From the IMG/VR virus record IMGVR_UViG_3300006923_000013, positions 21,788-85,787 of that record: DNA of 64,000 nt; one strand, given 5' to 3'. The stretch is from a virus. The notes beneath the pieces are model-generated. The model saw only the letters and a list, made by a program, of their open reading frames with translations. It did no database searches and had not been told where the DNA came from. This document shows, piece after piece, positions 1 through 53,450 of the stretch (position 1 is its first letter; each line of letters begins with the position of its first letter). A program made the position numbers and the translations under genes.

Positions 1-1989
1 TTTTGGAAAAAAGCCCATCCATTTATGGACATCTTCAAGTCTTTCTGGTAAAGATTTACGAATTGAAGGCATTTTATACATAGTTCTAAAATTAGAAGGA
101 AGTCCTTCGTCATTTATTGTATTTTGATTCATATACCGTATATAATACTTCCAATATATATTATCTCCCCCTTCAAGTTTACTATAAGCTGCAAGTTTTT
201 TATATGCAGGATTTAAGTATTTAGCGTGATCCTCTGGCTTTTTAGGAATTTCAAATTGAGTATGACTTGCTCTATGAATCATTGCAATTTTATCCTCAAA
301 GAGTGATAACGGACCTCTATCTCCAGATCGTGTAATATTATTAGCAGCATCACGTTTAGGTACGGATGCAGCTAAAGCCGCTTCGTGCTCCTTTTTAAGG
401 GCTTCTACCTTAGCGTCCCTTTTGGCTGTTGCTTCTCTTATTATTTTGTCTTTTTCTTCCTTTTTAGCGCCTTTAGGAATAATGTAACGTAGTGGTAATG
501 TATAGTTATACTTTATATTTTCTTTTTTCCACTTGATCCACTGTCTGGTTTTAGCTGCCTCTGATACTCCTTCTTGGCTATAGATCTCATCTTGCTTCTT
601 TTTACGGTCTCTACTCCAGTTAGAATGGTATTTAGATACGAAATATCCAGTAGGTTTGCCTATTTCATCTTTTTCAAGCATAAACGAATAGAACTCCTCA
701 CGGGTCATATTCTTATCCTTTTTCATCTGATGTTCCTGGAGCTCTTTAAAAGTACCATGTAATGCACGGACTTCATCTATCCATTTGAGACGTATTTCAT
801 CCTCTACTTTGGAGATTTCCATTTGTAGGGCCCTCAGAACATCATCGTTTACATCTTGAGCATTTAAGAACCAACGTTGGACAAATGAAATGTCCTGATT
901 AGTTGCTTCTAACATATTACGAAATATAACAGCTCCACGTTTTTCAAGTGTAGTTTTGGCCTCATCTAGCCTCATTTGTATATATTCCTCCTTTGTTTTA
1001 TCCTTTATGCCCATCTGTTCGAGCATAACGTCATCTCCTTTATACTTCTTATTAAGCTGTGCGAACTCTTTACCATAAGAGGTTTCTGCCCACGCTTTCA
1101 TCATATCTCCACCTGTAGAAAACTTATTTACTACATAGTCTTTAGCATAGCGTTCATACTTAGCAGCAATTTCCTTATGAACATCACTTGCAGTTTGTAG
1201 ATGCATTCTTACTTTATCGGGTACTATTAATTTACCCTCTTGAATTTGTGCAAGAGTTGAGTCGATGTCACTAAATGCTGTGATATAATAATAAATATCC
1301 TGAGCTGCGGCTGCAGTAAGTTTTTTAGTTCCTTCATCTTCTGCTACACCCATGTTAAGAATTAGCATATCCATTTCTTCAAGAATAGCTGCAGTTTGTT
1401 CCATTGCATTTGCTGCATAGTTCAATAGCCTTTCATCTTGTACTGCCTCTCCTATTGAATCTAATTCCTTTTCTAAATCCTTTTTTTGAGCTTTTAGCTG
1501 CCCACTAAGCAGTTCCTTTGATTTTTGGCGAGAGAGTGTCTTTATTCTCTTTTCCAAAGCACTTGCTGCTTTACGTAGTATTGCAACTTTTATAGAAGAT
1601 GTAGCTTTAAATTGACTGGTATTCCAAGGTTTAGTAGCAAGTATTTTACCACTGGCAAAAGACCAAACATCTGCCATATACGGCTCTCCATATATGATCT
1701 GTCCGTTCTCATCGTCTCCAAGGTTATACAATCTAGGAGATTCTTGAGGTGTATCTAATTTATTTACAAGCCTGTATTCATTAGCGGGTAAGATTTTCCA
1801 ATTACCATACGTATTCGTAAACTCTTGACTGCGTGCTAATTCCCAGAGGCTGTCTTTAATAAGTTCCCCCTGGGTTCCATCAGGCTTATCGTATCGTTGA
1901 TCCCCAAACTGTTCCTCTAATTTTTCGTAGAGCTTGCTGGGAATTTCTTTACCTGCTTTGTCTACTTTAAAAACTTTACATGTGCTCAT
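1..1989 (-). CDS. Large coiled-coil virion-associated protein, partial (runs off left edge)
   Basis: The frame is open from the ATG at 1987-1989 to the window edge (663 codons, no stop), so only the N-terminal part is visible. It begins MSTCKVFKVDK. The ATG overlaps the TGA of the RNA polymerase gene as ATGA, which suggests translational coupling and joint production with the polymerase. The visible part is rich in Lys, Glu and Ala, with long predicted helices, for example LEKRIKTLSRQKSKELL near residues 140-156, and looks like coiled coil. I see no catalytic motif. In crAss-like phages the polymerase is often encoded next to other giant internal proteins, so an ejected or polymerase-associated protein is a reasonable inference, but the function is unknown. 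Confidence 0.8.
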   Translation of the reverse strand, partial: MSTCKVFKVDKAGKEIPSKLYEKLEEQFGDQRYDKPDGTQGELIKDSLWELARSQEFTNTYGNWKILPANEYRLVNKLDTPQESPRLYNLGDDENGQIIYGEPYMADVWSFASGKILATKPWNTSQFKATSSIKVAILRKAASALEKRIKTLSRQKSKELLSGQLKAQKKDLEKELDSIGEAVQDERLLNYAANAMEQTAAILEEMDMLILNMGVAEDEGTKKLTAAAAQDIYYYITAFSDIDSTLAQIQEGKLIVPDKVRMHLQTASDVHKEIAAKYERYAKDYVVNKFSTGGDMMKAWAETSYGKEFAQLNKKYKGDDVMLEQMGIKDKTKEEYIQMRLDEAKTTLEKRGAVIFRNMLEATNQDISFVQRWFLNAQDVNDDVLRALQMEISKVEDEIRLKWIDEVRALHGTFKELQEHQMKKDKNMTREEFYSFMLEKDEIGKPTGYFVSKYHSNWSRDRKKKQDEIYSQEGVSEAAKTRQWIKWKKENIKYNYTLPLRYIIPKGAKKEEKDKIIREATAKRDAKVEALKKEHEAALAASVPKRDAANNITRSGDRGPLSLFEDKIAMIHRASHTQFEIPKKPEDHAKYLNPAYKKLAAYSKLEGGDNIYWKYYIRYMNQNTINDEGLPSNFRTMYKMPSIRKSLPERLEDVHKWMGFFPK

Positions 1990-4900
1990 TTACAGTTATC
2001 TTTAGTATGCGGATCGTCATTAAGGTCGTCCTTACTTATATATTTTTCAGGTCTAATTTGGGCCCTCATTCCTCTTTCTGTTCTAACGAGTTTTAACACA
2101 GGGCTCTTATTAAATACTGTATTGTTTATATGTCCTATATAATTAGCACTTTTTGCATGGTCGTGTTTAAATCCATAAAAGTATTTACCTTTTTTTTGTA
2201 GCTTCTTATCTTTTCCTTTTCCTAATGTACCCTTGTTTAAATATTTGTTACCAATTGCAAAGATCTGAGGAACAGTGAAGTGCAAAAATACAAAATCGCT
2301 TTCTTGTGCAGGTGAAAACTCTCTGTTTTCATTATCATGAGGTATAAAGTTTCTATGGTCATAGTAATCTTTATCCCGCGATAGTGCATCTGAAAACTTT
2401 GCTTCAAATATAGATACCCAAGAAGCATGTCCTTGTTCTGTTACCACTTCATGTTCTGTATTTAAAAAGAAATCAATTAATAACATCTGCGACTGTTCCT
2501 CTTTAGTAAATTTATCTAAGCGTTTATTAAAGTTACCTTTTAGGCTCACAAACTTTTCTACAAGATGAGGATGAGTAGTAATAATTGCATTTACAACTAT
2601 TTTTTCATCCTTTTCAGGTCTAAATACATATATAGGTATAAAATTAGGAATTTCCTTTTTAACATCGGTCTCTAACCACTGTACAACTTCTTGAATGGTA
2701 TCAAAATGTCTCTTACTTTCAGGAATAACGAAATCCAGATCATGTAAGGTTTCAGCTTTATCCCTATATACATTTCCCTGACTTCTTAGAGCAAGGGATC
2801 CTACGAGTACGGCATTTAATTTACTAATTGCCGTTTCCATCACTTCAAATGCTTTTGGAAATTTAGTGGCTCCTTCTTCAAAAGTTTTAAGTGTAAAGTT
2901 TTTATCCTTAGCCCTTCCATATGTTTCCATGAATTTTTTATCCCCAGAAAGAACTTGCTGTGCAATCTCATCTGCCATAATTTCTACTGGGATACTTGCT
3001 ATGGATTTTGCTATTTTAAGTATAGCTTCATACGCCTCATAAGCTAATTTAAGAAATTTACCTTTTGGAACTCGTTTTTCATTAGCGTAAATAATCGCCT
3101 CACCTATTATCTGCCCAATAGCTTCTTTTTTTATTTTCTCCATATTAGGAGAACCATCTATATTTTGATATAGCCTGTTTTTTGCATAAGCACGCTTAAT
3201 GGCTCCAAATTTGCCCCAAGACGTTATATTCTGCATAAGAGGTTTAATCAGATCACTCTTAACGCCTACAAGGTCTACAAGCATATGACTGAACTCTTCA
3301 GGCATTACCATCTTAGTTCTATCTTCTTTAGCTATATCTATAACTTTACGAAGTGTGTGTGCTACACCTAAAACTCCTTCTCCATACCGCTCTTCCATAT
3401 CCTGCATAGAACGTTCTGTAACAATTACTCCATATTCTTCTAAAAAGTCTGCTAAATAATTATCTAATTTTTTATCTGCTTTCTCTCCTAAAGTCTGCAT
3501 TTTAGCAACTATATCCTTATGTCCTTCTAATAACGAACTGAATCTATATGCCATAAGTACATTAAAAGGTTTGCCTTTGTATATAAGAGCATTACGTTGC
3601 AGCCAACGCTCAATTATATCAATTTCATCTTGACTGAATCCATTTTCAGCTAAAAATTCCTTATCGCTGGGTTTTAATTCTTTACCATCAAATACCGATT
3701 GTAAGTCTGCAGCATTCTCCATAAGAGTTGCAGCTCGTTCTACTTCATTAAGAAATGAGTTTTCTTCTAAATGAAAAAGTGTATTCACATCTGTAGTCTC
3801 ATTTGGAGATGTAGATAACTCCACTTCTACTAATATGCCCGCTTCTTTAAGTTTTTTAGTAGCAAAGGTTGTACCTACAATAACATTTTTTTGTAGTGCT
3901 TTATCTAAAAGAATAATATTATTAGTATTTATATTAGATCCTTTTCCCTCTCTTAAGAAAGGCTCAAATAAGGTTTTACCTCTATCGTTTTTTCCTAACT
4001 TGTTTACTACAACATATACAGGGAGCTGCTTTGAATTCCATCCTGCATGTCTGTATAATCTTTCATTCACTGTTACATACTTGGTAACACGAGTAACCTC
4101 TTCTCTTCCATCTATCAATTCTGTTTTAACAAGAGACGTATCTCCTGTAGCAAATCCGTAGACCTCAAGTCCTAACTCACTAGTAACTTTTTCTGCAAAT
4201 TTATCGGATATTTCAGGTACTAAATCTGTATTATGTGAATTATTTCTAAAGAAGATATCTAATTCTGCTCTTGAAAATAACCCTGGGTCAGTAGTATCTG
4301 AAACTACAGCACTACCTCCTTTGCCGTCTGATACCTCAATTGTGTTTGCTTCTTCATTAAATCGGTCAAATAATTCATCCTCTAATGAAAGGGGCATTAG
4401 TTCATGAAAACTAAAGAGTTTATTTGTATACCCACTTACAATAAAGGAATATAGAGCTAAATCTTTAGCAAATGCTTGTACTTTTTTATCTTCATGTAAG
4501 TAGAGTTGTTCCCAAGCTTCTGTAAGAAGGTCTTTACTTACTCCGTCTTTTTCTTGTGTATTTGGAACAGTTATACTTCCTATTTCATCCTTAATATTAG
4601 AGATATTACCTTTAGATGCAAGTAAATATTTAATAAGTCTGTTTTCTTTTATAGGAGACTTACTAGAAGTCTGCCAGAATGCAAGCTGATTCACAATATT
4701 GTTATCACTTATTACAAGTTCCTGGAATTTCTCTTGTGTAAGACTTTTTGCCTTCTTAGCAAGATACATACTGTATAAATCTCTATAGGCCCTTCTTAGC
4801 TTTTCTGGATTTTTACTGAAATACTCATTATTGGACATTTCTTCTATCTGCCATAATGCTGATCCAAATCCAGCACTTCCAATATTAAAAGAGTCTTTAA

Positions 4901-7900
4901 ATAACGAGAGCATTAAAGATGTAGAGTTATCTCTATATTTAGCAAGCATTGTGTTTTCAAATCTAGCTGCTATACCCCGTAATCCTGTATCTTGTAATGC
5001 ATCACTAAGTTTACGTTCAGAGACCAATGAGTTTACCATTCCTCCACCTGCACCCTCCACATCTTGTTTAGATGCTCCAATTGCAGAACTAAGTACTGAT
5101 GCCCGTTGGCGTAAGTGAAAAAATGTTTCCACTACAGTAAGTTGATGTATAATATGCTCAATATCAGTAGCTTCTTTATTCTTGATCCCTTCTTCTAATG
5201 TAGATATATTTAAAAGGTTATCAAGTTTTAATGTGTTACTTCCAAATTTAGAATTTATATTCTTTATTTCATCTTTAAATGCTTTCTCTGCGTTTATATA
5301 CGACATACCCTCTCCCTCCATTGTCTCTATATACTTCTTCTTATAATCACGAAGTACTGCTTCCTTATCTGTTAAAGTCTTTTTAGTTTTTTCATCCCAT
5401 ATCCGTTTAGTATTACCCGCACGTGTGTATTGAGCATATTCTACCCATTCTTTAAGTATAGGCTGAGACATGAACATATCAGTCCATTCTGGGTTCGCCC
5501 CGAGGCGATCTAACAGAAATACAGTATTTGCTGTGAACTCATTATTGTTTAGATAAAAGATATAAGGATCTTTTGCTATATCCACATATGCATTAAGTCT
5601 ACCTGAAATGATATTAGTGATCGTACCTTTTGCAGTATTGTAAATTTGAGAAAGATCAGAGAATCCTGATTTGGTTTTATTACCAATTCCTAAATTTTCT
5701 GAAAAATACAATGGAGATTCTTCGCTCACGTTATCTGAAAGAGAGAACTGAGAAATCGCATGGTCAACCAATTGACGTGCAGTAAGTGCTACTCCTGTTT
5801 TACCTCCTACAAATTGCTGCTTTACATCTACTTGAAACGAAGCTGAAAACCACTCAAGATCTCCTTTGACAGACATGGCGTCTGTCACAAACTTTATAAA
5901 ATCTTCAAGTTTATCTGCAGCAATAAGCGCTTCACCCCTTGCACGCATTTTGTGATCAAAAACTGTAGTATAATTCTCAAAGAATCTAACTTTTGCAGCT
6001 CTGAATTTTACTCCAATGGAATCCAAAGGAGTAATTAGGTCTATATATGTTTTAGGATCACTTATAACAGCATCGTATATCTCAAGTTTTCTATTTTGAA
6101 GTGCTTTCTTACGAATTGCTCTTTTTTTCGAATAGTATATCTCTGTAGCCTTTTCTTTTGAAGTCGTTCCTTTTTTATTCTTTTCTTGTATCGCTTCTAT
6201 TTGCTTTTCTGTTGGAGGTAATATAGGACCTTTCATAGATTCCTTATATTCTATATAATAAGGTTTACCTGAATTTTTATCCACTCCAAAATTAGGAAGC
6301 ATAATGAACATCTTATCGATGTCGAAATCCGAACCTGTCTTAGCTGTGATATCATCGTATGCTACTACCGCATCTCCCATAGATTTCGGTAAAAACCCTA
6401 CAACTTCAAATGCATCGATAGAGCTCATACCTTGATTTGGTATTCTATATGCTATACCTCTAAGTAATCGCTTATCAGAGATATATTTCTGAATCTCTGC
6501 AGACGACATCTTTTCGTAATTAGGAATAAGATCTCTAAACCAAGAAGGAAGCATAATTTGGGCCCGAGAGAACTTAACAAATTCGCCGCCCTTATTAACT
6601 TCAGATATACCAGGTTTCAAATCGTTAGGATTAGTAACCATTTCTATCTCTGCCTTTTCTGCATCAGTAAGACTTGACCAGCGTTTAGTACGCTTAAATC
6701 CGAAGTTACTCAACTGAATATACGAGCCACCTGGCATTTTAAGCTTTACAGTACGTGCTGTAATGATAGATCCAATTAATTGGTCGATCTTATCTGCATA
6801 TGGATGAGAGTGAAGAGGGCGTAAGAATCCTCTCTTATCTGCTCTAAGTTCCAATGAATCTAACAGCTTTCTGGGAGTTGATTCTTTCTTACTGAACTCT
6901 TTATAGATTAACTCATGTAATTTAGTGTAATCTGTAATCTGTGGATCACCTTCATCATTAGTAGTTATACCAAATTCTTCATAAAGTTTATCCTTGCCCA
7001 TATTCGACAGTTCTCTGTCTATATCATGTGCCTGTTTAATTAGATTTTGACCCGTAACTTTTTTTCCATCTAAAGTATACTGTGCATTTATCCTAATATT
7101 AGCAAGTAGATTACGTTTAACCTGAGACCCCTCAAGAGACTCAGAAGCTGTGTGAGGACGCAAGTCCTGCTGAAGCTTCCAATACTCATTACGAAGAGTC
7201 ATTACATTAAGCTTCAGTTTTCCTTCACCTGTAAAATGCTTAGGAGATTGGGCGCCGACTTTAATACCTGATTCGAAGATCACCTCATCGATAGGATTAG
7301 TTTTATCTGTCATTGTAGCATACAGAGTTTCTAACTTATCTGTACCCTTTACAACTTGTGGAAATAATACTGCTTGGGAATACTTTATATACGTAGGAAC
7401 CATAAGTCCTTTATAAGGACGTAATTCATAATGCATACCTTTTAAAGGCATTGCAGCTATAAATTTCATATCCTTTGCTGTTCCTGCTCCTGCAAGTAAT
7501 CTTTTATAGATCTCATCTATTTTACTATTGTCCCAACGGCCTAACCTTTTCATAATGAATGCCCAACGCTCAAGTGATATATAGCCCTGCCCATCAGCTT
7601 GGTTTACCTTACTATAAGGTTTAAGAATGCGTTTAATATCTGCTTCTGAGAATCCCCATCCATGCTTTTTATTTGCGGCTTTATAGCTAGCTAAGTACTC
7701 TCCAAAATATGCACTTGGTTCTTCTATATCCCGTAAAACTGCCATTTTGAAGAACTCTTCTCCGACAGCTAAATTTAGATCCTGACCTGGTGCAATAAGA
7801 GATGGCATTCTCTTAGAGAGCTCATCCATATTAAAATAGAAAGCAGGATTACCTGCATATACTTGCATTGCCTCTAAATTAGAAATAATGCTATTAAGAC

Positions 7901-10900
7901 CAAATGCAGCTATTGCGCGTCTGGTTCTTACATCCGCAGAGTGCACTATTTCTCCTGCTTCGTTTACTGTTTGCCCATCGAGGGTACTGAATGCACTGAA
8001 TGTTTTTGTAGCTATAGCATGATTCTTAAGTCCGCCATTCGGATTAGTTTGTATTGTAGAATACCTTAATGCTGTTCCTACTTCTGCTCTGATTCTATCA
8101 TTTATGATATCTGTCATCTTAGACACGAATGCTGGCTTTTCAAGAAGATCCTTAATTACAGGATGAACTATGGTCTTTCCAACCTTAAACCCGATCTTTT
8201 GTAAAAACTCCTCATCATTAAAAGAAGGAAATGTTACGAATTTAGTGCCGTTTGCATTTTCACGTAAAAGCTTTCCTGTCTTCTTATCCTCTCCCTTATA
8301 GTGATAATTTTCTATAAGTTGCGAATCGGTAAGTGCGTGTTTTCCGAACAGTTGTAAATCAGCTTGATATATAGCTGCCATTTCGGTAACAGCATAGGTA
8401 CTAAATATCTTAAGTATATGAGGAGGTATAATATAAGTATCTGTTTTTTTATTATACTCTATCATATTAATATCCGAAGGAGTTAAATATTCTACTCCTT
8501 TATATAGCATCCAAACTCCTTTATCTGCCATAGTTGCAGGGCTGTAAGTATGCTTTAAAGTCATATTTACTCGAAGTGTGTATTCGTCTGCGGGGTTCAA
8601 ACCTTTATAGTCTGTTCCGTGATCGTTTCCTCCCTGTTTCTTGTAGGTATTGAAAGTTTTATATACTAACTTTTTACCTTTTTTCAACTGCTTCAGTAAT
8701 TGCGATTGACCATGATATGGACTTTTTAATAACTCATCTGCATAATAAGAAGACCTGTTCATTTGTAATGTACGCTTCTTGAAGAAATTATTCAGTGAGT
8801 ATATCCAGTAAGTTTTACCTTCTGGACCCAGGATAGTAGTTTGACCAAAATCTTCTGTTACAACTGCCTCTCCTGCAGCAAGTTTCATTACAAAACTCTC
8901 TTTAAGCATATGATTTTCTACGAAATCTACAGCTACATTTCCTTTATTTTTTCCCTTTCCTGCCAAAGTACCCATAGAATATGTAGAACCTGTTCCCATA
9001 AGTTTTGACATGCCACCTATAAATATCCTACGAGCAGTTTTAAATTCTGGAGAAATCAGGTTAAATGCCTGTTCTAATCCCTCTTCGCTCATTTCTATTC
9101 CTAAGTGCTCTAAAAATATACGTGTAGTATGAGAAGTAGACGCTGTAAGACCTTCATTACGTAAATCGAGCATAACTTGTAACCACATAGCACTGTTACG
9201 TGCGGCTACGTCTTTATTAGCTGTAATTACAAGATTCCCCTCTTTATCCTCTTTTTTGCTATATAAGGGCAACTCCTTATGATTCTCAAACCATCTATCT
9301 CGAATACGATATGCTTTACCTTGCTGTTGAGGGTCTATAAACTTATATAGTAAGCTCTTCTGTACCTGTCCTTTTACTTCGTAAACTAAATTCTGATACA
9401 GAACAGTTAAGAAATTGCTATTTGATTTACTCATAGCATTAAAGAACTGTGTCCTTTCATTTATAGGTAACGCTTTTACACGAGTATATAAACTCTCAAA
9501 TGTTCTATCTGAAACCGATAAAGTCTCTAATTTGACCATCATCTGATCGTAAGAAGATATAGTTTTACCTTGTTCATTGGTATATGTAACAGTATCAGCT
9601 AATAAAGCCTCAACTGTGTTCCACATATGCCCAGGATTAGCCATTACAGGCAATCCCGTGTCTACATTCGTAACTAGTTCACCGTTCTTATCAAATAGCG
9701 GTAAAAAGCTAAAGAATACCCTGGTAGTAGTAGTAGCATTTTGCTTACCACTGGTCTCAAACGGAGATTTAGATGCAGCCAAGACATCAGCGTTATCCTT
9801 TCTCGTTTCTTCGTTTTCTCTGATTCCTAATTGTTGTAATCTAAGTTCTGCATGTTCAACAAGGACATCTACTTCTCTTAGTAGTAGTTTTCTCGCATTC
9901 AAAAAGGGCTTTTCATTTTCTATAGTTTCTGCCCTTTTGACCTTAAATTCTAAATATGCTTTAAAGAAAGCATGTAATTTCTTACTCTCTTTCGCATTAG
10001 CTTCAAAACTCTCTATATCCTTGATATTATGAACTCCTCCTATTCCTCCTGCGTTATCTATATAGTGGTGTAAAGTAATATTAACTGTCTGCTCTACTGT
10101 ACGGGGGTCTAAGGGAAGCCTCTCCATTGCTAAAGCATGTAAACCTTTTCCACTGCGCCACGCTTCTACTTTAGCCGATATAGGCTTAGTATTAGCGTAA
10201 TACCCTGCAGACATACGGTAGAACAGTAAGTCTGTGTGCATACGGGTTTTAGGATTCATCATATATCCGACTAAAGCCTTGATATACTTAAACCATCGTA
10301 TTACCTTCTCTCCTACTCCTGCAGTTTCACCTGTAGTTTCCCAATATCTATACTCTTCAGCACGTATTTCAGAATAATAGATAGCCTCTGCTACTTCTTC
10401 GGTAATATCCTTATGTTTAGATTGAATCTCTTTGATCATGGCTTTGGTAGGAACACCAAATTGCTGCCTGGTCTGAATATCTAATCCTCTACGTTGCTCT
10501 GGTGCAAGCCATAATTCTTCAACAGCATGATAGGCTTCGTGGTACTCTGCGCCATGTACAGCCTGTTCAGATAAAGTAATCATACCCTTTCTAAATACAC
10601 CGTATGCATATGCACCTTTTCGTCCTAAGCTTATCAGGCTCTTTTGAATATTAACAGGAACAGTATCTCCAAGTACTCTCTTTAAGTATGCCCGAGCTTT
10701 AATCTCGTTGAATTTCTCTTTAGGAGCTTTTTCCGAAGTGTCGTCCCCTACCTCTACTTCCATAGAAAGGTTTTCCATGTCATCGCCAAACTGGAAGTTA
10801 TGACCCTCGTTTGTGGTTTCTTTTTTTGCTGCAGTTTTAGTATCTTCTTTCTTTTTTTCTTCCTTTTCTTCCCTACTCTTATTATGCACTTCAGTATTAA

Positions 10901-13900
10901 ATATAAACTTACTTGCTGAATGTACAAGGTGTTTTGGTCTAAGTTGATCGTCTAATTTAGTGTCTGTACGCATAACATGCATATCTACATCCTCAGAATT
11001 GTTTTCTGTTAGAAAATGCTCATTATACTTATCATACTCATCTTCAAGGTATGTAACCCCTTGAAATACAATAGAACCCCGTTTCTTAAGGGACATTGTT
11101 TCCGAAGTGAATATATCAAATATCGATTTATTTAATGCTGTTGAATGTACCTGACGTTTTTTGTTCGCTAAAGCCCACGCTATGAACTGCTCTTTGGTAC
11201 TTTCCGTAAGTTGTACAAAGTCTCCAGCCTCACCGTCATAAAAATATGCTTGATTTTCTTCTATCACGAGAGCAGTATTTATGAACGGAGAAAACCCTTT
11301 TCCTGCTCCAAGAGTATAGTGCTGTTTTGCATACTCTCTAGACTCGAAAGAATATGTAAGCATTTCAAGGTATTGCAGAATTGACAACCCTGTATCTATT
11401 TCATTTCGCCAGTACCTCGAAGACTTACTTCTTGCCTTTTTATAAAATTCAAGTATATCCAATAGATCAAAAACCTCATTCTCATTAAGCCCTCTTTGAT
11501 TAAGCTTAACACTTTGCGGCTCTTCTGTAGCAGGATCAACTACCATCGCATAGACTACACCATTATTAGCCTTTGTACCTGTATCAAATCCTACAGTCGT
11601 ACCTCCTCCAGTAATTTCAAAGTCATTCTTAACTCCTAATACTACTGGACCATCTGGGAATAAAGATTTAATAGAGAAGTGCTCCCCTATATTTTCCTTT
11701 ACTCCATCCCTACTACGAAGCTCGTTCCAAAATGCCCTTACTTCTTGATATTTGGATATAGTACCAAATGCAGGTTCTCCTGCAACATACTGCTTGTATA
11801 TTTTACGTCTAAGGAGCGCAGTAGCCTCTTTATTACTCTGATCTCCTGTGAGCCCGCTCTGCAAATTTACACTGTATTCAACTCCTGTTTTCGGATCCTT
11901 TATCCATACGTTTATATGAAGCTTTGCAAGATCTCCGACTGGAGCATCTTTAGGAGGTGTAATTTTATTTCTATACTTATCTTTTATTATAGAGCTTGCG
12001 TACCAATACTTTGAATCGAAATCTATTTCGTATCTAACCTCTTTATTTTCAAAAAATATAGAGGGAAGAGAATTTATATACTTAAGAAAGAGATCCGTTA
12101 TGTGTATTCCATTCCTTATAGATCCTATTAAGGATATAGGCTTTTTAGCATCTGTAAAACTTGGTTCGGGCTCAACTGCTTCTTCTTCAGTTGTATTTTC
12201 TTCTGTTTTAGGACCTGAATTTCCATCTTGGTTATCGTGTTCTACCTTTTCTGCATTTTCAAATGAAGTGTTTACAGTTGGAACTACTTCAGGTTCTACA
12301 ACTACTTCAGGCCCCACGTCTGCTTTTACTTCTCCTGTTTCTTCTGGCGCATGTTCCTCAGCAGTTTCTTCTGCGTTTTCGAATAGAGCATCATCTACTA
12401 CAGGTATTACAGGTACTACAGGTTCGTCAAATTTAGAAAATAGATCATCTACATCATCGGACCCTTCCTCCTCCTCCTCCTTAGCCTTTTTAGCCTTTTC
12501 CGCTTCTTGCTCTTTCTTCTCATTTTTAGCATTCTGTTGCTTTCCATGAGAAGTAGCATTTTCAGCTTTAACTTCCTCAATTGGTACTATAAGTGTAATA
12601 TTATCTCTTTCTACTGGTACCTCTATTTCACCATTCCATACTCCATATGTAGCATTCCCTTCTTGATCTGTGGTTATTCTAAGATTTCCATGTTGTGCTT
12701 GCCCATTGGAATCTTTATATTCTACCAAAGCATTTTCTTCTAAACCTTCTTGATTTTGCTTAGCAATAGTAGGTTCTTTTTCCTTTACCTCTGGTCTCTC
12801 TAAAGTTTTACCAAAATCCTGTATAAATGGATTTGCCATGAGCGTTTCTCCATTTGACGCACTTTGTATCAACTCTCTGGTTACATCATTTTCCCGTTTA
12901 GATGCTTTGGCTGCAAATGCGGTATTATTAAGATCCTGTAGATCTTTATTTAGAGGAATACTTTTGGTCGTTGTATGTCCATGCTGTTCCAGCATAGTTT
13001 TGTACTGCTTTTCAAGTCCTGGTACAGCTTCTTTGTGCTCTGTAGCTTTTGTTCCCTTTAATATTTTTGTATAGTAATCCTCCTGTATCTTATTAATAGC
13101 AGCAAGACGCATATCTGTAGTCCCAGGAAGAGCCTTAATACGCTTAAGCTTTGCTCTGGCTACATTCAATTCTGCCTTTAGAGCTATAAGTTCAGACATT
13201 CCCTGTTCCTTCTCCGTTGTAGGAGCTGGAAGACCTGCAATAACTTTTTGAATTTCTGACTCTGCATTGGAAATATCCTCTGCTAATCTTTCCCCTGTAG
13301 AGTAGTTACTGATAAGGGCCCTAAATGCTGTGCTTTTATCTTCTACGCTTAACGATTTGAACTTCTCTTGATTTACATTACTATGGATTGCGGATGCAAC
13401 GAGAACCATTTCTCTGGCTTTAGGCATATCCATCTTCTCTGCAATATCAGGAAAACTCTTCTCAATCTTATTGAGTAACTTATTAAGCTTTTTAGCTCCA
13501 CCTTTCTCTTGAAGTTTAGTGAAAAGCCATTCAGACATTGCCTTATTATGCTCTGCATCCATATACCTATCGTATACCTGCTCTACAAAATCTTCTGCAT
13601 CTGAACCATACATTTGATTATCTACTACCTTCTGTGCAGTTCTTATGCCTAATTCTCCTACTGTTCTGGTACCTCCCATGACACCACCAAGCATTACTCC
13701 TGCATCAACAGAGGCTTTAAACTCTTTGGATTCCGTGCGTCCTCCTGCAACTCTATAGTCTAAAATCCTATTAATAGAGTTATTGACCATCCCTCCAGTA
13801 GTTTCTGCAGCCAGTCCCATACTGTTTACAATAGATTCGAGTCTTTCTAAATCATCATAGTCTCCTCTTAGATAACCATTCTTAATTAAGAACTGGTCTC

Positions 13901-15164
13901 CTTCTTCTCTTCCTTCCCAATAAGCTCCTACACCTACACCACCAGCTCCTGCACCTGCATAAGCAGCTCTTCTTCCCCATTTACCTGTAGGTAAGAAGTT
14001 TTTAAACTTACTCCAAGGTAAGAACCCTATACCTGCTTCAATCACATCTGTGGCAAATAGATTTTGATTCAGGTCATACACAGCCCCTACAGTAGACATC
14101 GTTTGTTTTTCAAGAGCAGCTAACTCTTCTTCTGGCATTTCCTTGCCATTATTAAGCAGTCTGTATTTTCTTTTCTCTCCCTCAATCTTAGATTCAAATG
14201 CTTCGTGCATTTCTGCGTAAGATTCTCTATTTCTAGAGTAAAGCTGTGCAGCAAGTGCTCCGCCGAATCCTACAGCGAATCCAATAGTACCTCCAACTGT
14301 TACTCCACCTGCAGCTCCTGGTCCTGACCATATAGTCGCACCAAGTCCTACTGTAGCCCCTACAAGTGCTGTAGCCTTTCCTGCAATATAAGGAGCAGCC
14401 ATACTCGCCCCCATTGCTTGTATTTCAGACATAGTTCCACCTAAATGGTGTGCAAGCTCCATCCAACTGTCAGGCCAAGCTCCTGGATTTGCTACATCCT
14501 GATCAATCCTATGTTGACCATATTTTCCTAAATAGTCAGATGCAGCCTTATGTTCTATTTCGTTTTCTTTTATATCTTGCTCATAATCAGCAATATCATC
14601 ATCGATCTCTTGTAAAGCATCGAGCTGATCTTCAGTTGGTACTCCTCCTGAATTTTTAATATCTTCTTCGATTATGTTCTTTCTATTAGTAGCCTCAAGG
14701 ATCTCTCCTTTAGTAGCACTTATCTGAATAGCATCTATATTCTGCTGAAGAGCATTCCATACATTACGTATTCCACTCTTTTCTAAGATCTCTTCTTTAG
14801 TACTTACAACCAGTGCATCCTCAGGGTTAAAACGAGGATCACTGTTTAAAAGCTTTCTATCTTCTCCTCCTTTATTTATATACTTAAGTAACTCTGATTT
14901 ATAGCGTTGCTGAAGATACCCCGCTTTATCGGCTGTATAAGCATCCTGCTCTTCGAAAGAACGTGGGTCTTCTGGTCCATAAGGATTTATGGGATTCTCA
15001 AAAGGAAGCTCAGTATTTGGAGGGATTGGAGTTGTTGCTGTGCCTTGCTTATTTTGTAAAGGCTTATTCTGAAGTTCAGAGCGTAAGCTTTCGCTTTGCT
15101 CTACTTCCTTATTTTCAAACTGCTCTACATACTCTTCAATAGGCCTGTGTTGTTTAGCGCTCAT
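1986..15164 (-). CDS. Giant virion RNA polymerase polyprotein (zincin + RNAP + nucleotidyltransferase-like domain)
   Basis: At 4392 residues this is the largest protein here. DFDID at residues 2946-2950 matches the DxDxD Mg-binding loop of two-barrel RNA polymerases. It is preceded by a segment parallel to bacterial beta-prime (R2907-IP, then AFEVVGFLP, then the catalytic loop). K2594 in PTYIKYSQA is a candidate for the first-barrel lysine. Other parts: Gly/Ala-rich hydrophobic stretches at about 245-311 and 391-415, possibly membrane-active; a Glu/Lys/Pro-rich linker at about 870-1010; a zincin motif HEAYH at 1542-1546; and a C-terminal nucleotidyltransferase-like signature, GS at 4122-4123 with HDLD at 4141-4144. 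From memory, the homologous enzyme of Cellulophaga phage phi14:2 is about half this size and is packaged and ejected to transcribe early genes. Start ATG at 15164; the stop overlaps the next gene. The RNAP call is firm; the outer domains are motif-based. Confidence 0.88.
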   Translation of the reverse strand: MSAKQHRPIEEYVEQFENKEVEQSESLRSELQNKPLQNKQGTATTPIPPNTELPFENPINPYGPEDPRSFEEQDAYTADKAGYLQQRYKSELLKYINKGGEDRKLLNSDPRFNPEDALVVSTKEEILEKSGIRNVWNALQQNIDAIQISATKGEILEATNRKNIIEEDIKNSGGVPTEDQLDALQEIDDDIADYEQDIKENEIEHKAASDYLGKYGQHRIDQDVANPGAWPDSWMELAHHLGGTMSEIQAMGASMAAPYIAGKATALVGATVGLGATIWSGPGAAGGVTVGGTIGFAVGFGGALAAQLYSRNRESYAEMHEAFESKIEGEKRKYRLLNNGKEMPEEELAALEKQTMSTVGAVYDLNQNLFATDVIEAGIGFLPWSKFKNFLPTGKWGRRAAYAGAGAGGVGVGAYWEGREEGDQFLIKNGYLRGDYDDLERLESIVNSMGLAAETTGGMVNNSINRILDYRVAGGRTESKEFKASVDAGVMLGGVMGGTRTVGELGIRTAQKVVDNQMYGSDAEDFVEQVYDRYMDAEHNKAMSEWLFTKLQEKGGAKKLNKLLNKIEKSFPDIAEKMDMPKAREMVLVASAIHSNVNQEKFKSLSVEDKSTAFRALISNYSTGERLAEDISNAESEIQKVIAGLPAPTTEKEQGMSELIALKAELNVARAKLKRIKALPGTTDMRLAAINKIQEDYYTKILKGTKATEHKEAVPGLEKQYKTMLEQHGHTTTKSIPLNKDLQDLNNTAFAAKASKRENDVTRELIQSASNGETLMANPFIQDFGKTLERPEVKEKEPTIAKQNQEGLEENALVEYKDSNGQAQHGNLRITTDQEGNATYGVWNGEIEVPVERDNITLIVPIEEVKAENATSHGKQQNAKNEKKEQEAEKAKKAKEEEEEGSDDVDDLFSKFDEPVVPVIPVVDDALFENAEETAEEHAPEETGEVKADVGPEVVVEPEVVPTVNTSFENAEKVEHDNQDGNSGPKTEENTTEEEAVEPEPSFTDAKKPISLIGSIRNGIHITDLFLKYINSLPSIFFENKEVRYEIDFDSKYWYASSIIKDKYRNKITPPKDAPVGDLAKLHINVWIKDPKTGVEYSVNLQSGLTGDQSNKEATALLRRKIYKQYVAGEPAFGTISKYQEVRAFWNELRSRDGVKENIGEHFSIKSLFPDGPVVLGVKNDFEITGGGTTVGFDTGTKANNGVVYAMVVDPATEEPQSVKLNQRGLNENEVFDLLDILEFYKKARSKSSRYWRNEIDTGLSILQYLEMLTYSFESREYAKQHYTLGAGKGFSPFINTALVIEENQAYFYDGEAGDFVQLTESTKEQFIAWALANKKRQVHSTALNKSIFDIFTSETMSLKKRGSIVFQGVTYLEDEYDKYNEHFLTENNSEDVDMHVMRTDTKLDDQLRPKHLVHSASKFIFNTEVHNKSREEKEEKKKEDTKTAAKKETTNEGHNFQFGDDMENLSMEVEVGDDTSEKAPKEKFNEIKARAYLKRVLGDTVPVNIQKSLISLGRKGAYAYGVFRKGMITLSEQAVHGAEYHEAYHAVEELWLAPEQRRGLDIQTRQQFGVPTKAMIKEIQSKHKDITEEVAEAIYYSEIRAEEYRYWETTGETAGVGEKVIRWFKYIKALVGYMMNPKTRMHTDLLFYRMSAGYYANTKPISAKVEAWRSGKGLHALAMERLPLDPRTVEQTVNITLHHYIDNAGGIGGVHNIKDIESFEANAKESKKLHAFFKAYLEFKVKRAETIENEKPFLNARKLLLREVDVLVEHAELRLQQLGIRENEETRKDNADVLAASKSPFETSGKQNATTTTRVFFSFLPLFDKNGELVTNVDTGLPVMANPGHMWNTVEALLADTVTYTNEQGKTISSYDQMMVKLETLSVSDRTFESLYTRVKALPINERTQFFNAMSKSNSNFLTVLYQNLVYEVKGQVQKSLLYKFIDPQQQGKAYRIRDRWFENHKELPLYSKKEDKEGNLVITANKDVAARNSAMWLQVMLDLRNEGLTASTSHTTRIFLEHLGIEMSEEGLEQAFNLISPEFKTARRIFIGGMSKLMGTGSTYSMGTLAGKGKNKGNVAVDFVENHMLKESFVMKLAAGEAVVTEDFGQTTILGPEGKTYWIYSLNNFFKKRTLQMNRSSYYADELLKSPYHGQSQLLKQLKKGKKLVYKTFNTYKKQGGNDHGTDYKGLNPADEYTLRVNMTLKHTYSPATMADKGVWMLYKGVEYLTPSDINMIEYNKKTDTYIIPPHILKIFSTYAVTEMAAIYQADLQLFGKHALTDSQLIENYHYKGEDKKTGKLLRENANGTKFVTFPSFNDEEFLQKIGFKVGKTIVHPVIKDLLEKPAFVSKMTDIINDRIRAEVGTALRYSTIQTNPNGGLKNHAIATKTFSAFSTLDGQTVNEAGEIVHSADVRTRRAIAAFGLNSIISNLEAMQVYAGNPAFYFNMDELSKRMPSLIAPGQDLNLAVGEEFFKMAVLRDIEEPSAYFGEYLASYKAANKKHGWGFSEADIKRILKPYSKVNQADGQGYISLERWAFIMKRLGRWDNSKIDEIYKRLLAGAGTAKDMKFIAAMPLKGMHYELRPYKGLMVPTYIKYSQAVLFPQVVKGTDKLETLYATMTDKTNPIDEVIFESGIKVGAQSPKHFTGEGKLKLNVMTLRNEYWKLQQDLRPHTASESLEGSQVKRNLLANIRINAQYTLDGKKVTGQNLIKQAHDIDRELSNMGKDKLYEEFGITTNDEGDPQITDYTKLHELIYKEFSKKESTPRKLLDSLELRADKRGFLRPLHSHPYADKIDQLIGSIITARTVKLKMPGGSYIQLSNFGFKRTKRWSSLTDAEKAEIEMVTNPNDLKPGISEVNKGGEFVKFSRAQIMLPSWFRDLIPNYEKMSSAEIQKYISDKRLLRGIAYRIPNQGMSSIDAFEVVGFLPKSMGDAVVAYDDITAKTGSDFDIDKMFIMLPNFGVDKNSGKPYYIEYKESMKGPILPPTEKQIEAIQEKNKKGTTSKEKATEIYYSKKRAIRKKALQNRKLEIYDAVISDPKTYIDLITPLDSIGVKFRAAKVRFFENYTTVFDHKMRARGEALIAADKLEDFIKFVTDAMSVKGDLEWFSASFQVDVKQQFVGGKTGVALTARQLVDHAISQFSLSDNVSEESPLYFSENLGIGNKTKSGFSDLSQIYNTAKGTITNIISGRLNAYVDIAKDPYIFYLNNNEFTANTVFLLDRLGANPEWTDMFMSQPILKEWVEYAQYTRAGNTKRIWDEKTKKTLTDKEAVLRDYKKKYIETMEGEGMSYINAEKAFKDEIKNINSKFGSNTLKLDNLLNISTLEEGIKNKEATDIEHIIHQLTVVETFFHLRQRASVLSSAIGASKQDVEGAGGGMVNSLVSERKLSDALQDTGLRGIAARFENTMLAKYRDNSTSLMLSLFKDSFNIGSAGFGSALWQIEEMSNNEYFSKNPEKLRRAYRDLYSMYLAKKAKSLTQEKFQELVISDNNIVNQLAFWQTSSKSPIKENRLIKYLLASKGNISNIKDEIGSITVPNTQEKDGVSKDLLTEAWEQLYLHEDKKVQAFAKDLALYSFIVSGYTNKLFSFHELMPLSLEDELFDRFNEEANTIEVSDGKGGSAVVSDTTDPGLFSRAELDIFFRNNSHNTDLVPEISDKFAEKVTSELGLEVYGFATGDTSLVKTELIDGREEVTRVTKYVTVNERLYRHAGWNSKQLPVYVVVNKLGKNDRGKTLFEPFLREGKGSNINTNNIILLDKALQKNVIVGTTFATKKLKEAGILVEVELSTSPNETTDVNTLFHLEENSFLNEVERAATLMENAADLQSVFDGKELKPSDKEFLAENGFSQDEIDIIERWLQRNALIYKGKPFNVLMAYRFSSLLEGHKDIVAKMQTLGEKADKKLDNYLADFLEEYGVIVTERSMQDMEERYGEGVLGVAHTLRKVIDIAKEDRTKMVMPEEFSHMLVDLVGVKSDLIKPLMQNITSWGKFGAIKRAYAKNRLYQNIDGSPNMEKIKKEAIGQIIGEAIIYANEKRVPKGKFLKLAYEAYEAILKIAKSIASIPVEIMADEIAQQVLSGDKKFMETYGRAKDKNFTLKTFEEGATKFPKAFEVMETAISKLNAVLVGSLALRSQGNVYRDKAETLHDLDFVIPESKRHFDTIQEVVQWLETDVKKEIPNFIPIYVFRPEKDEKIVVNAIITTHPHLVEKFVSLKGNFNKRLDKFTKEEQSQMLLIDFFLNTEHEVVTEQGHASWVSIFEAKFSDALSRDKDYYDHRNFIPHDNENREFSPAQESDFVFLHFTVPQIFAIGNKYLNKGTLGKGKDKKLQKKGKYFYGFKHDHAKSANYIGHINNTVFNKSPVLKLVRTERGMRAQIRPEKYISKDDLNDDPHTKDNCK

Positions 15165-15188: not shown

Positions 15189-17789
15189 TTAGGCAGGTTC
15201 AATATGCACATGTCCTCCATGAGATAGAACTTTATACCCTTTAGGCTCTAATTCTGCTTTAATAGATGCAATTAACGCTGGATCCTTTATATTAAAATCA
15301 ATTGCTGATCCTACTCTATGTTTGCTACTAACTGCGGCAGGACTTCCAGTATTTTTAAGAAACTTTTGAAGTGCTTCTGGCCTTCCCATAGAATTGACAT
15401 TTATACTGGGAACTCCATTTGCTTGCGCCCAACTGTCTACAGCAGTAAGTATAGCTTTTCCCTCATTTGATACATAAGGAGCACTTACCTTACCACTTTT
15501 AATATCTCCTTGAGTAGCTATGTTACTATCCCAATTAAGAGTTTTATAGGCAGAACTATCTACTTTAGTTAAATTATTAGCTTTACCCCACTTATCCATT
15601 TGTGCTGTATATGTGGCACCATCTATAGGAGTATTGTCTCCTTTACTGAGATCTAATCCAAAGTCATCGATTGCAAAAGCGTCACTTCCAAAGGAAGCAA
15701 GTCCTTGTTTTTCCATCGCCGCACTAAAATTATCATGTACTTGGGCCAAAGCTTGTTGTTTAACATCTGCAGGCCAGTCTGATTTTCTGATCTGATCGGC
15801 TCTACGTCCAAAATGCTCTATTGCAGTAGTTAATTCACTAAATGATTTAACAAGTTGAGGATTCTTAGTTCGTGCGCTGGATGCAGTAATATTTAACTTA
15901 TTTTTTATTACTTTTTCATTACCGTCTAACTCTAAATTTTTCAGTGCTAAAAGTGCAGAATTATGATAATTACTTACTGCCTCACCATTATCTCCTTTTG
16001 GCATCAGTCTATTAGCTTTCTTAAAGGCTGCATGCTCTATAGCAACACCCATTCTCTCCATTTTTGCATTGTATTCTGCCTGTTTTAAGAGCTCTGCCTG
16101 TCTTTTATCTACTGCATCTATATTACGTGCGTCTCTTTGTTTAGTGGTAGAATGTTTAAAGTCTCTGTCTTCTCTTGCTGTTCGATCACTTCCATTAGGA
16201 ACTAATATTTGCATAGAGTAAAGCTCTTCACCGTCACTTTTACCTTCAGATTTAACAAGTCCAAGAGTACTGGTAACTAGAGACCTTAGATTCCAGTCTC
16301 CTTCTAAAAATAAATCTTCCCAATCACTGTGCTTAAGCCATGAACTGCTTCCACCAAAGAAAGCCGTAGCTTCAGTATCTGTAAAAAGAACTTTCGCCCT
16401 TGTATACAGTTTCCCATTGATCATAGTTGTATTATTTACATCTGGAATTTGAGTTTTAATGCGATGTCCTCCTAAAGAGCTTGTAAAGTTATGAATAAGT
16501 TTTGCGTGTCCGTCTGTTAAATCAGTTTCTTTTATATATGTTTCATAGAAGTCTGCTTTTCGTCCTTCTTCTATGTTTTCAAAAGGATCTATGCCAGAAT
16601 CTAAATACTTTGCTTCTTCTTTTACACGAGCTATAAGTCGCTTCTCAGCAGCCGTTTTATTTCCCTTATCTGCAAGTAGTTCCATTACTGTACGAACATC
16701 TGCATCATCATAGAAATCTTCAAGCTCCATTCCAGCTAATCGTTGTGATTTTGCTTTATTAGCATCGTATCCTACATCTCCTTCATGGTAGGTTTCTCCA
16801 TTTAAGGTATAAGGAAGATTATTAGCCTCTAACAAAGGTTCTATATATACCTTTGATCCTTGACCTAAATTCATAGGAGTAATTAAGATATCAGCTCCAT
16901 TATGGTCTATTTTCTCAGGCTTTCCATGTACTAAAGCAAGGGACTCTGGACTCACTGTAACATGTGTTTCTCCCCCTGATATCAAAGGTTCATATATAGT
17001 TTCGTGTGTATAACTTCTTGACGCTGCTACTGCTGCCGCCTCTTTTTCTTGTTGTTCTTCTAATGTCTCTGCTTGTGTTCCGCGATTAAGGTTCCAAACC
17101 TCTACAGCTTTGTTTTGGAGTTTATCGTGTGCAAACTTCTCCAGTGCAACGGGATCGTTTATATCTCCATCTTGATCAAAGAATGCTTGTACAACTCTAG
17201 GATCTTGAGCGAAGTTAGCTGCACCTTGAGCTGCTACCATTTGTAAGAACTTCAAATCCGTTGCAGATTCATCTGGTACATCATCGAAATACGCTTCTGC
17301 TGGATCATTTAAAGTTACTGTACCTATATTTCCTATTGAAAGTCTTCCAGTACCACCTAGATTATTAACGTCCTCTGCAAAGTTTCTATTAGTTCTAGGA
17401 TCATTTTTACCAGCTAAGATATTAGCTTGTCTGGCCTTTTCTCCTGCTACTGCAAAATCAGCATTATATTGAATATCAGCAAGTCTTGGATCACTGGCTA
17501 TTCGTCCTATTTCTTTTGTAAGACGTCCTGTACTTCCACTAAGATCCTGTTCAGACGCAGTTTTCATGTATTCATCGAATTCCGCCTGTTTTTGCTTTAA
17601 ATATACTTCATCATCAGAATTTGGAACGTAATCTATATCGAATAATTCGTCCTTAGCAGTCTGCAACTGTTCAACAGCTTTATCTTGTCTCCCTTGCTTA
17701 TATTTCGCCGCACTAAGTAGCTCTGCAAATGGATACTTATATGTATAATCGACAGAAGGGACCGAAGTAGTCTTATAGAATCTTCCCAT
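15189..17789 (-). CDS. Internal virion protein with C-terminal M15-type peptidase domain
   Basis: 866 residues. The last about 90 residues carry the zinc-ligand pattern of the M15/LAS peptidase family: H824 and D831 in SKHRVGSAIDF, then H860-V-H862 in GGHVHIEP four residues from the end. Such enzymes cut D-Ala-containing peptide bonds in peptidoglycan. The long N-terminal part (MGRFYKTTSVPSVDY...) has helical, Gln/Asp/Lys-rich sequence like other large virion proteins and shows no enzyme motif. It lies between the cargo-like protein and the RNA polymerase, all in one transcript direction. That position suggests a particle component that opens the wall during entry and not a free endolysin. 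The peptidase call is strong; its timing of action is inferred. Confidence 0.8.
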   Translation of the reverse strand: MGRFYKTTSVPSVDYTYKYPFAELLSAAKYKQGRQDKAVEQLQTAKDELFDIDYVPNSDDEVYLKQKQAEFDEYMKTASEQDLSGSTGRLTKEIGRIASDPRLADIQYNADFAVAGEKARQANILAGKNDPRTNRNFAEDVNNLGGTGRLSIGNIGTVTLNDPAEAYFDDVPDESATDLKFLQMVAAQGAANFAQDPRVVQAFFDQDGDINDPVALEKFAHDKLQNKAVEVWNLNRGTQAETLEEQQEKEAAAVAASRSYTHETIYEPLISGGETHVTVSPESLALVHGKPEKIDHNGADILITPMNLGQGSKVYIEPLLEANNLPYTLNGETYHEGDVGYDANKAKSQRLAGMELEDFYDDADVRTVMELLADKGNKTAAEKRLIARVKEEAKYLDSGIDPFENIEEGRKADFYETYIKETDLTDGHAKLIHNFTSSLGGHRIKTQIPDVNNTTMINGKLYTRAKVLFTDTEATAFFGGSSSWLKHSDWEDLFLEGDWNLRSLVTSTLGLVKSEGKSDGEELYSMQILVPNGSDRTAREDRDFKHSTTKQRDARNIDAVDKRQAELLKQAEYNAKMERMGVAIEHAAFKKANRLMPKGDNGEAVSNYHNSALLALKNLELDGNEKVIKNKLNITASSARTKNPQLVKSFSELTTAIEHFGRRADQIRKSDWPADVKQQALAQVHDNFSAAMEKQGLASFGSDAFAIDDFGLDLSKGDNTPIDGATYTAQMDKWGKANNLTKVDSSAYKTLNWDSNIATQGDIKSGKVSAPYVSNEGKAILTAVDSWAQANGVPSINVNSMGRPEALQKFLKNTGSPAAVSSKHRVGSAIDFNIKDPALIASIKAELEPKGYKVLSHGGHVHIEPA

Positions 17790-53379: not shown

Positions 53380-53450
53380 CAGATTTATAGACACATATAC
53401 CCTTAGGGCAGTTACATTGAATAGGTGCGACTTCACACCATTTTGTTACT

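What the first reader, a model, noticed from the sequence alone, without database searches (positions are those of the whole stretch)
1986..15164. A 4392-residue crAss-type virion RNA polymerase fused to several other domains
DFDID (2946-2950) and the preceding beta-prime-like segment identify the polymerase core, but it fills only part of the chain. Membrane-like Gly/Ala segments (245-311, 391-415), an HExxH zincin (1542-1546) and a nucleotidyltransferase-like C terminus lie on the same polypeptide. The phi14:2 enzyme, as I recall, is about half as long. The protein may combine membrane passage, self-processing, transcription and RNA modification.
Basis: partly seen in the sequence, partly recalled or inferred. 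Interest (0 to 1): 0.75.

Follow-up and report, generated by a model that had tools for sequence, protein, structure and literature searches.

The report
Giant multi-domain crAss-phage virion RNA polymerase
A gut-type virus of bacteria makes one huge 4392-residue protein that joins its injected RNA polymerase to an apparently active zinc protease, a second protease-like domain with a changed active site and a probable nucleotide-adding enzyme; giant polymerases of this sort were known, but this set of attached domains and how regularly it travels with the polymerase were not described in the papers I could read.

Summary
The ORF is real and is a crAss-type virion RNA polymerase: residues 1800-3246 match phi14:2 gp66 (6vr4, E 5.5e-119), with DFDID at 2946 and conserved lysines 2594 and 2635. 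Its size is not new: public Suoliviridae carry 4551-4946-residue homologues.

The extra domains hold up. Residues 1480-1654 form a zincin ("Z1", HEAYH 1542 plus E1599), with H, E, H, E and A invariant in 59 divergent viruses. Residues 4080-4392 carry an invariant Pol-beta-type triad (GS, D4142, D4144, D4231). That domain recurs beside the polymerase in IMG/VR viruses and had no tblastn match in 50,697 phage records. The Gly/Ala segment is real and conserved, but its hydropathy is below chance.

In 80 polymerase loci the order N - Z1 - RNAP - Z2 - D holds while gene borders move. Z1 stays intact where the chain is naturally split (phiCrAss001 gp47), so cutting this junction cannot be its only role. 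The closest architectural parallel is the unrelated N4 vRNAP. Verdict: new variant of a known kind. Protease and nucleotidyltransferase activities are inferred, not shown.

The parts
1986..15164 (-). 4392-aa giant virion RNA polymerase chain (P0001)
13575..14444 (-). N2 module (residues 241-530) holding the Gly/Ala-rich uncharged run; shared with N-termini of Suoliviridae giant chains
   Evidence: (hits in cr50_1, cr118_1, cr53_1)
14247..14375 (-). 43-residue run (264-306) without charged, Q, N or H residues
10812..11642 (-). D2, domain of unknown fold (1175-1451), clade-specific (also L005, L006, L030, L115)
   Evidence: model (moderate confidence)
10203..10727 (-). Z1 zincin domain (1480-1654)
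10527..10541 (-). HEAYH (1542-1546), catalytic motif of Z1
   Evidence: invariant H, E, H in 59-60 sequences
10368..10370 (-). E1599, probable third zinc ligand (ExxAE motif)
   Evidence: invariant; aligns to the PEEFFAE stretch of Zmp1
5427..9767 (-). RNA polymerase core homologous to phi14:2 gp66 (1800-3246)
   Evidence: E 5.5e-119 to 6vr4
7383..7385 (-). K2594, conserved lysine of the first barrel region
   Evidence: K72 of A3, at least 90%
7260..7262 (-). K2635, conserved lysine
   Evidence: K113 of A3, at least 90%
6315..6329 (-). DFDID catalytic loop (2946-2950)
3987..5249 (-). C-terminal part of the polymerase module (3306-3726), matches phi14:2 gp66 1687-2089
2979..3446 (-). Z2', second zincin-family domain (3907-4062) with degenerate motif
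   Evidence: (profile seeded from HEFSH protein, E 1.6e-34)
3285..3299 (-). EEFSH (3956-3960), HExxH position with first His replaced by Glu
1989..2927 (-). Pol-beta-like nucleotidyltransferase domain (4080-4392): GS 4122-4123, D4142, D4144, D4231
   Evidence: model
1..1989 (-). Start of the downstream partner gene, module D (1329 aa in the full contig), homologous to phi14:2 g065 366-1417 and phiCrAss001 gp49
15189..17789 (-). Upstream 866-aa protein of the block, conserved with L005 and L006

Best explanation
[quoted passage not shown] By homology to proteins found in phi14:2 and phiCrAss001 virions it should be packed in the capsid, ejected N-terminus first, refolded in the host, and used to transcribe early genes; the polymerase identity is shown by sequence, packaging and use are inferred. 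The N-terminal module is most likely the leading, envelope-contacting part of the ejected chain (inferred, about 0.55). The Z1 zincin is an active metalloprotease (about 0.8 from active-site conservation) that works after ejection, with at least one target beyond the NTD-polymerase junction, either host proteins or co-ejected cargo (about 0.5); cutting the chain in cis near the junction may be an additional role. Z2' is a zincin-fold domain whose first zinc ligand is lost, so it is probably structural or regulatory in this virus (about 0.7). The C-terminal domain is a catalytically competent Pol-beta-type nucleotidyltransferase (about 0.7) whose substrate, RNA or a host protein, is unknown.
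For: RNAP: 6vr4 match E 5.5e-119; DFDID and lysines in A3; homologous proteins gp47, gp49 and gp50 are detected in phiCrAss001 virions (PMC6235969, PMC10172136). Z1: H, E, H, E and A invariant in 59-60 sequences; the model shows helix - three strands - HExxH helix - helix with E1599, at pLDDT mostly about 90-97; weak PDB profile hits are dominated by zinc metalloproteases (Zmp1 E 0.031, FtsH, YME1). Not only junction cutting: Z1 is intact at the C-terminus of the separate gp47-type protein in phiCrAss001, PhiCrAssBcn2, cr112_1, tikkala, cr85_1, cr128_1 and Dulem virus 41. Z2': profile match E 1.6e-34 to a family with intact HExxH members, A6-A7 hhalign E 1.3e-5, same strand/helix order, viral fold hits include phage peptidases, SprT-like, IrrE-like and phi14:2 g065. 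NTase: 22 invariant columns including GS, DxD and D over 12 diverse sequences; found beside RNAP, Z2 or D modules in all new loci.
Against: No experiment on this virus. Foldseek against PDB gave no significant match for either model; the zincin-type and NTase-type hits are at E 0.18 or worse. Pfam, NCBIfam and PDB sequence searches do not recognise the NTase. Hydropathy of the Gly/Ala segment is below chance. The trans target of Z1 is purely inferred.
Confidence: 0.6

Rival explanations
1. Self-processing polyprotein: the zincin at the junction cuts the chain in cis, separating the N-terminal ejection part from the polymerase, as proposed for polyvalent proteins in general.
For: Z1 sits between the N-terminal module and the polymerase; in split genomes it is the last domain of the upstream protein (last 158-522 aa in 11 ORFs). 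Zincin processing of multidomain injected proteins was proposed by Iyer et al. (PMC5512222).
Against: Z1 keeps its whole active site in genomes where the gene is already split at this point. phiCrAss001 virion gels show bands of 270 and >300 kDa and all three subunits were detected (PMC6235969), compatible with uncut chains in the virion. About half of polymerase loci have no Z1 at all.
Confidence: 0.25
2. Z1 and Z2' are non-catalytic scaffolds (for example clamp or autoinhibitory domains, as the N4 vRNAP CTD) and the motifs persist for metal-dependent folding.
For: Z2' has lost a ligand in many viruses (EExxH, at least 6 changes on the tree); some Z1 copies are HExxE (L149, L152, L179, L183, L184, L188). 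The N4 CTD, which contains an HExxH domain, packs on the polymerase and is reported to autoinhibit it (PMC12633501).
Against: The catalytic glutamate and all ligands of Z1 are invariant in the 59-60 aligned sequences, though that set was gathered with the motif as search pattern; the motif-independent sample still shows 28 of 35 Z1 domains intact.
Confidence: 0.2
3. Frame or assembly artefact joining separate genes.
For: Homologous genes are separate in phi14:2 and phiCrAss001.
Against: A 4392-aa copy and a truncated identical copy in other contigs and fused relatives at 35-46% identity; many fused loci in the survey.
Confidence: 0.01

Closest known systems
phi14:2 gp66 virion RNA polymerase (PDB 6vr4)
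   Same: Same two-barrel single-chain polymerase core, DFDID, lysines, and gene block with a D-type partner (g065).
   Different: 2180 aa; N-terminal part in a separate gene (g067); no Z1 detected in g066 or g067; intact zincin (HEIMH) in g065; no NTase.
phiCrAss001 gp47 / gp50 / gp49 (Steigviridae)
   Same: Same parts: upstream protein ending in Z1 (gp47), polymerase (gp50), Z2' EEFAH plus D (gp49); all three detected in virions.
   Different: Three genes on two strands instead of one fused chain plus D; no NTase found.
Suoliviridae giant chains (cr1_1 gp076 4551 aa, cr50_1 4774 aa, cr118_1 4946 aa)
   Same: Z1 and polymerase in one chain of similar size; the N2 module is recognisable in cr50_1 and cr118_1.
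   Different: Annotated as hypothetical protein, DNA helicase or exonuclease V; module D in the next protein; no NTase found.
Coliphage N4 gp50 and schitovirus vRNAPs
   Same: Works alike in plan: membrane-interacting NTD, polymerase and HExxH zincin-like domain on one giant ejected chain.
   Different: The polymerase is T7-like, unrelated to the double-psi-barrel core; the zincin lies after, not before, the polymerase.
Polyvalent proteins (Iyer et al. 2017)
   Same: Injected multi-domain chains in which zincin metallopeptidases and Pol-beta NTases recur.
   Different: crAss-type polymerases do not appear in the passages of that paper that I read; the NTase here matches no described family by sequence.

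Membership tests
crAss-type two-barrel virion RNA polymerase | Sequence homology over the core to phi14:2 gp66 | tested here: met
   E 5.5e-119 over 1447 residues
crAss-type two-barrel virion RNA polymerase | DxDxD catalytic loop and conserved lysines | tested here: met
crAss-type two-barrel virion RNA polymerase | Position in the crAss structural/transcription gene block with MCP, portal, TerL | tested here: met
crAss-type two-barrel virion RNA polymerase | Presence in the virion | not testable with these tools
   only by homology to phiCrAss001 gp47/gp49/gp50 (PMC10172136)
Zincin metallopeptidase (Z1) | HExxH plus downstream Glu ligand | tested here: met
Zincin metallopeptidase (Z1) | Zincin fold | tested here: inconclusive
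   right order of secondary structure at high pLDDT but no significant Foldseek match
Zincin metallopeptidase (Z1) | Proteolytic activity | not testable with these tools
   needs a purified domain
Active zincin (Z2') | HExxH | tested here: not met
   EEFSH; filed as zincin-related fold only
Pol-beta superfamily nucleotidyltransferase | hG[GS] ... DxD ... D signature | tested here: met
   invariant in 12 sequences
Pol-beta superfamily nucleotidyltransferase | NTase fold | tested here: inconclusive
   strand/helix order fits at moderate pLDDT, mostly about 70-88; TUT7 and Pol mu among non-significant hits
N4-like vRNAP | T7-like single-subunit polymerase domain | tested here: not met
   core belongs to the 6vr4 family

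The most novel reading that the evidence does not exclude
Two unrelated lineages of virion RNA polymerase (crAss double-psi-barrel and N4 T7-like) independently evolved into the same injected multi-enzyme machine (envelope-contacting leader, polymerase, zincin and extra enzymes), and in crAss phages the zincin is an injected protease acting on host or co-ejected proteins at the start of transcription, with a new NTase family as a further effector.
Probability: 0.35. Interest if true: 0.8.

Novelty: new variant of a known kind. Interest (0 to 1): 0.57.

Why it matters
CrAss-like phages dominate many human gut viromes, and the large parts attached to their virion polymerase are described as of unknown function (PMC10770324). 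The evidence gives those parts identities that can be tested in the cultured phage phiCrAss001: a conserved zincin at the end of gp47 and a zincin-related domain in gp49. It also shows that the modules keep their order while gene borders shift, and it exposes a recurrent NTase family with no match in public phage records.

Tried and rejected
Pfam and PHROGs on the whole chain gave nothing useful. DNA-level search in phage records: no match. tblastn of the N-terminal 800 aa, residues 801-1800 and the last 662 aa in phage records: none. Foldseek of both models against PDB: nothing significant. One-working-zincin rule: Z1 and Z2 states are strongly associated in raw counts (Fisher 2.6e-7 for EExxH, 1.3e-5 for Z2 intact), but the phylogeny-corrected pair test is not significant, so I do not claim it. 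Transmembrane helices: not shown, hydropathy below chance. Cellular relatives of the NTase: none found in genome contigs. Papers searched for a prior zincin report: Yutin 2021, Bayfield 2023 and others held in the library mention none in the passages found; Drobysheva 2020 and Yutin 2018 are not held, so prior description there cannot be excluded.

Full report
Observation. The minus-strand ORF 1986-15164 encodes 4392 residues from an ATG. The window is bases 21788-85787 of an 85,787-bp virus record. IMG/VR holds a 99.95% identical 4392-aa copy, a truncated 100% identical copy, and relatives of 4720 aa and 3890+1167 aa, so the chain is not an artefact.

Polymerase. A plain sequence search of the PDB returns one entry, 6vr4 (phi14:2 virion RNA polymerase), E 5.5e-119 over residues 1800-3246; profile iteration extends homology to 3726. 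Across 15 divergent chains the DFDxD loop and lysines equivalent to 2594 and 2635 are conserved. The gene sits in a crAss-type block with major head protein, portal and terminase. A tree of 72 cores places it with L113, L114 and L115 (support 95-100).

Size is not new. phi14:2 splits the region into 1797, 2180 and 1421 aa; phiCrAss001 into gp47, gp50 and gp49 on two strands; Suoliviridae already show single chains of 4551, 4774 and 4946 aa under names such as hypothetical protein, DNA helicase and exonuclease V. A review states up to about 6000 aa (PMC10136315).

First zincin (Z1). A profile of the region around HEAYH 1542 finds the same domain in Suoliviridae giants and at the C-terminus of the separate upstream protein of Kehishuvirus and Dulem virus 41. 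A scan of IMG/VR found 199 stretches encoding relatives. In 59-60 aligned sequences H, E, H, the later E (1599) and an A are invariant; because that scan used the motif as search pattern, motif-independent checks were added. In the polymerase-based sample of 80 loci, 35 have Z1 before the core, 28 of them with intact HExxH. A tblastn search with the Kehishuvirus region, not the motif, led to Steigviridae with split genes, and all those examined have an intact site. The model of 1165-1800 has pLDDT mostly about 90-97 over the zincin part, with helix, three strands, HExxH helix, then a helix with E1599, the arrangement described for zincins in PMC5512222. PDB profile hits are weak but mostly HExxH zinc metalloproteases, led by Zmp1 at E 0.031. 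Foldseek of the whole 636-aa model found nothing significant.

Second zincin (Z2'). A profile started from an intact HEFSH protein (L117) finds window residues 3907-4062 at E 1.6e-34, with EEFSH in place of HExxH, and also reaches Z1; hhalign of the two families gives E 1.3e-5. The model repeats the strand-helix order, and viral fold hits include phage peptidases, SprT-like and IrrE-like proteins and phi14:2 g065. EExxH occurs in 13 of 35 loci with Z1 and in 0 of 45 without, but closely related viruses share states and the corrected pair test of Z1 against intact Z2 is not significant.

NTase. The last 313 residues carry VGS, then HDLDFVI about 17 residues on, and later LLIDFFL. A scan found 22 loci; in the 18 new ones the domain lies beside Z2, polymerase or D modules. 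In 12 diverse sequences 22 columns are invariant, including GS, both Asp of DxD and the third Asp. No library recognises it, no public phage record matches by tblastn and no cellular relative was found. Among non-significant PDB fold hits of the C-terminal model are a zincin toxin protease, collagenase G, TUT7 uridylyltransferase and Pol mu, in line with the two sequence-based assignments but not proof.

N-terminal module. Residues 241-530 match the N-termini of Suoliviridae giants. The Gly/Ala run is longer than in shuffles, and 35 of 76 Z1 chains have a significant uncharged run in the part before the zincin, but hydropathy does not support ordinary transmembrane helices. By analogy N4 gp50 has predicted membrane-spanning helices at 224-278 and its NTD inserts in nanodiscs (PMC12633501); this is a lead, not a test.

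Module order. Over 80 loci the order N - Z1 - RNAP - Z2 - D holds, where each part is present, and gene borders fall at different joints, from a single 5329-aa chain (L013) to three genes. One exception, L204, has Z1 - NTase - HExxH - RNAP. In the window virus the border falls after the NTase, and the D module is the next gene.

Mechanism. The chain is most likely capsid cargo ejected into the host for early transcription (homologues gp47, gp49 and gp50 are detected in phiCrAss001 virions, PMC10172136, PMC6235969). Z1 is probably an active protease. Because it stays intact when its chain is already split at this place, and because phiCrAss001 virion gels show bands at 270 and >300 kDa, cutting this junction is unlikely to be its only task; I favour action after ejection, at least partly in trans. 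Z2' is probably structural or regulatory. The NTase is probably active, substrate unknown.

Known versus new. It is a member of the crAss-type polymerase family. It works like, but is not a member of, the N4 vRNAP family. The zincin pair and NTase were not mentioned in the papers I could read; two key papers were not held, so this is not proof of priority.

Noticed in passing
L006 16411-19914: Tandem duplication of the Z2'-NTase unit in one 1167-aa ORF; the second NTase copy has lost GS and part of the acidic triad.
   Followed up: partly
L149, L152, L179, L183, L184, L188: Z1 copies with HExxE or HExxG-type motifs (for example FHEAFES) instead of HExxH, third ligand mostly kept: possible altered metal site or decay.
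   Followed up: no
window 50380-53436: 1018-aa protein near the portal and head protein genes with HEGGH at residue 318 and an endolysin-like C-terminus (phrog_7348).
   Followed up: no
window 15189-17789: 866-aa protein just upstream with a sub-threshold M15 peptidase match at its C-terminus (E 0.015).
   Followed up: no
L204 1-12708: 4236-aa open chain with NTase and HEYAH placed before the polymerase core, breaking the usual module order.
   Followed up: partly
L076, L079, L095, L099: Giant polymerase chains that open fully only if TAG is read as a residue.
   Followed up: no
L018, L021, L196, L022: Public records label these giant polymerase chains exonuclease V, DNA helicase, DprA-like protein or nuclear pore complex protein-like: misleading annotations.
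   Followed up: yes
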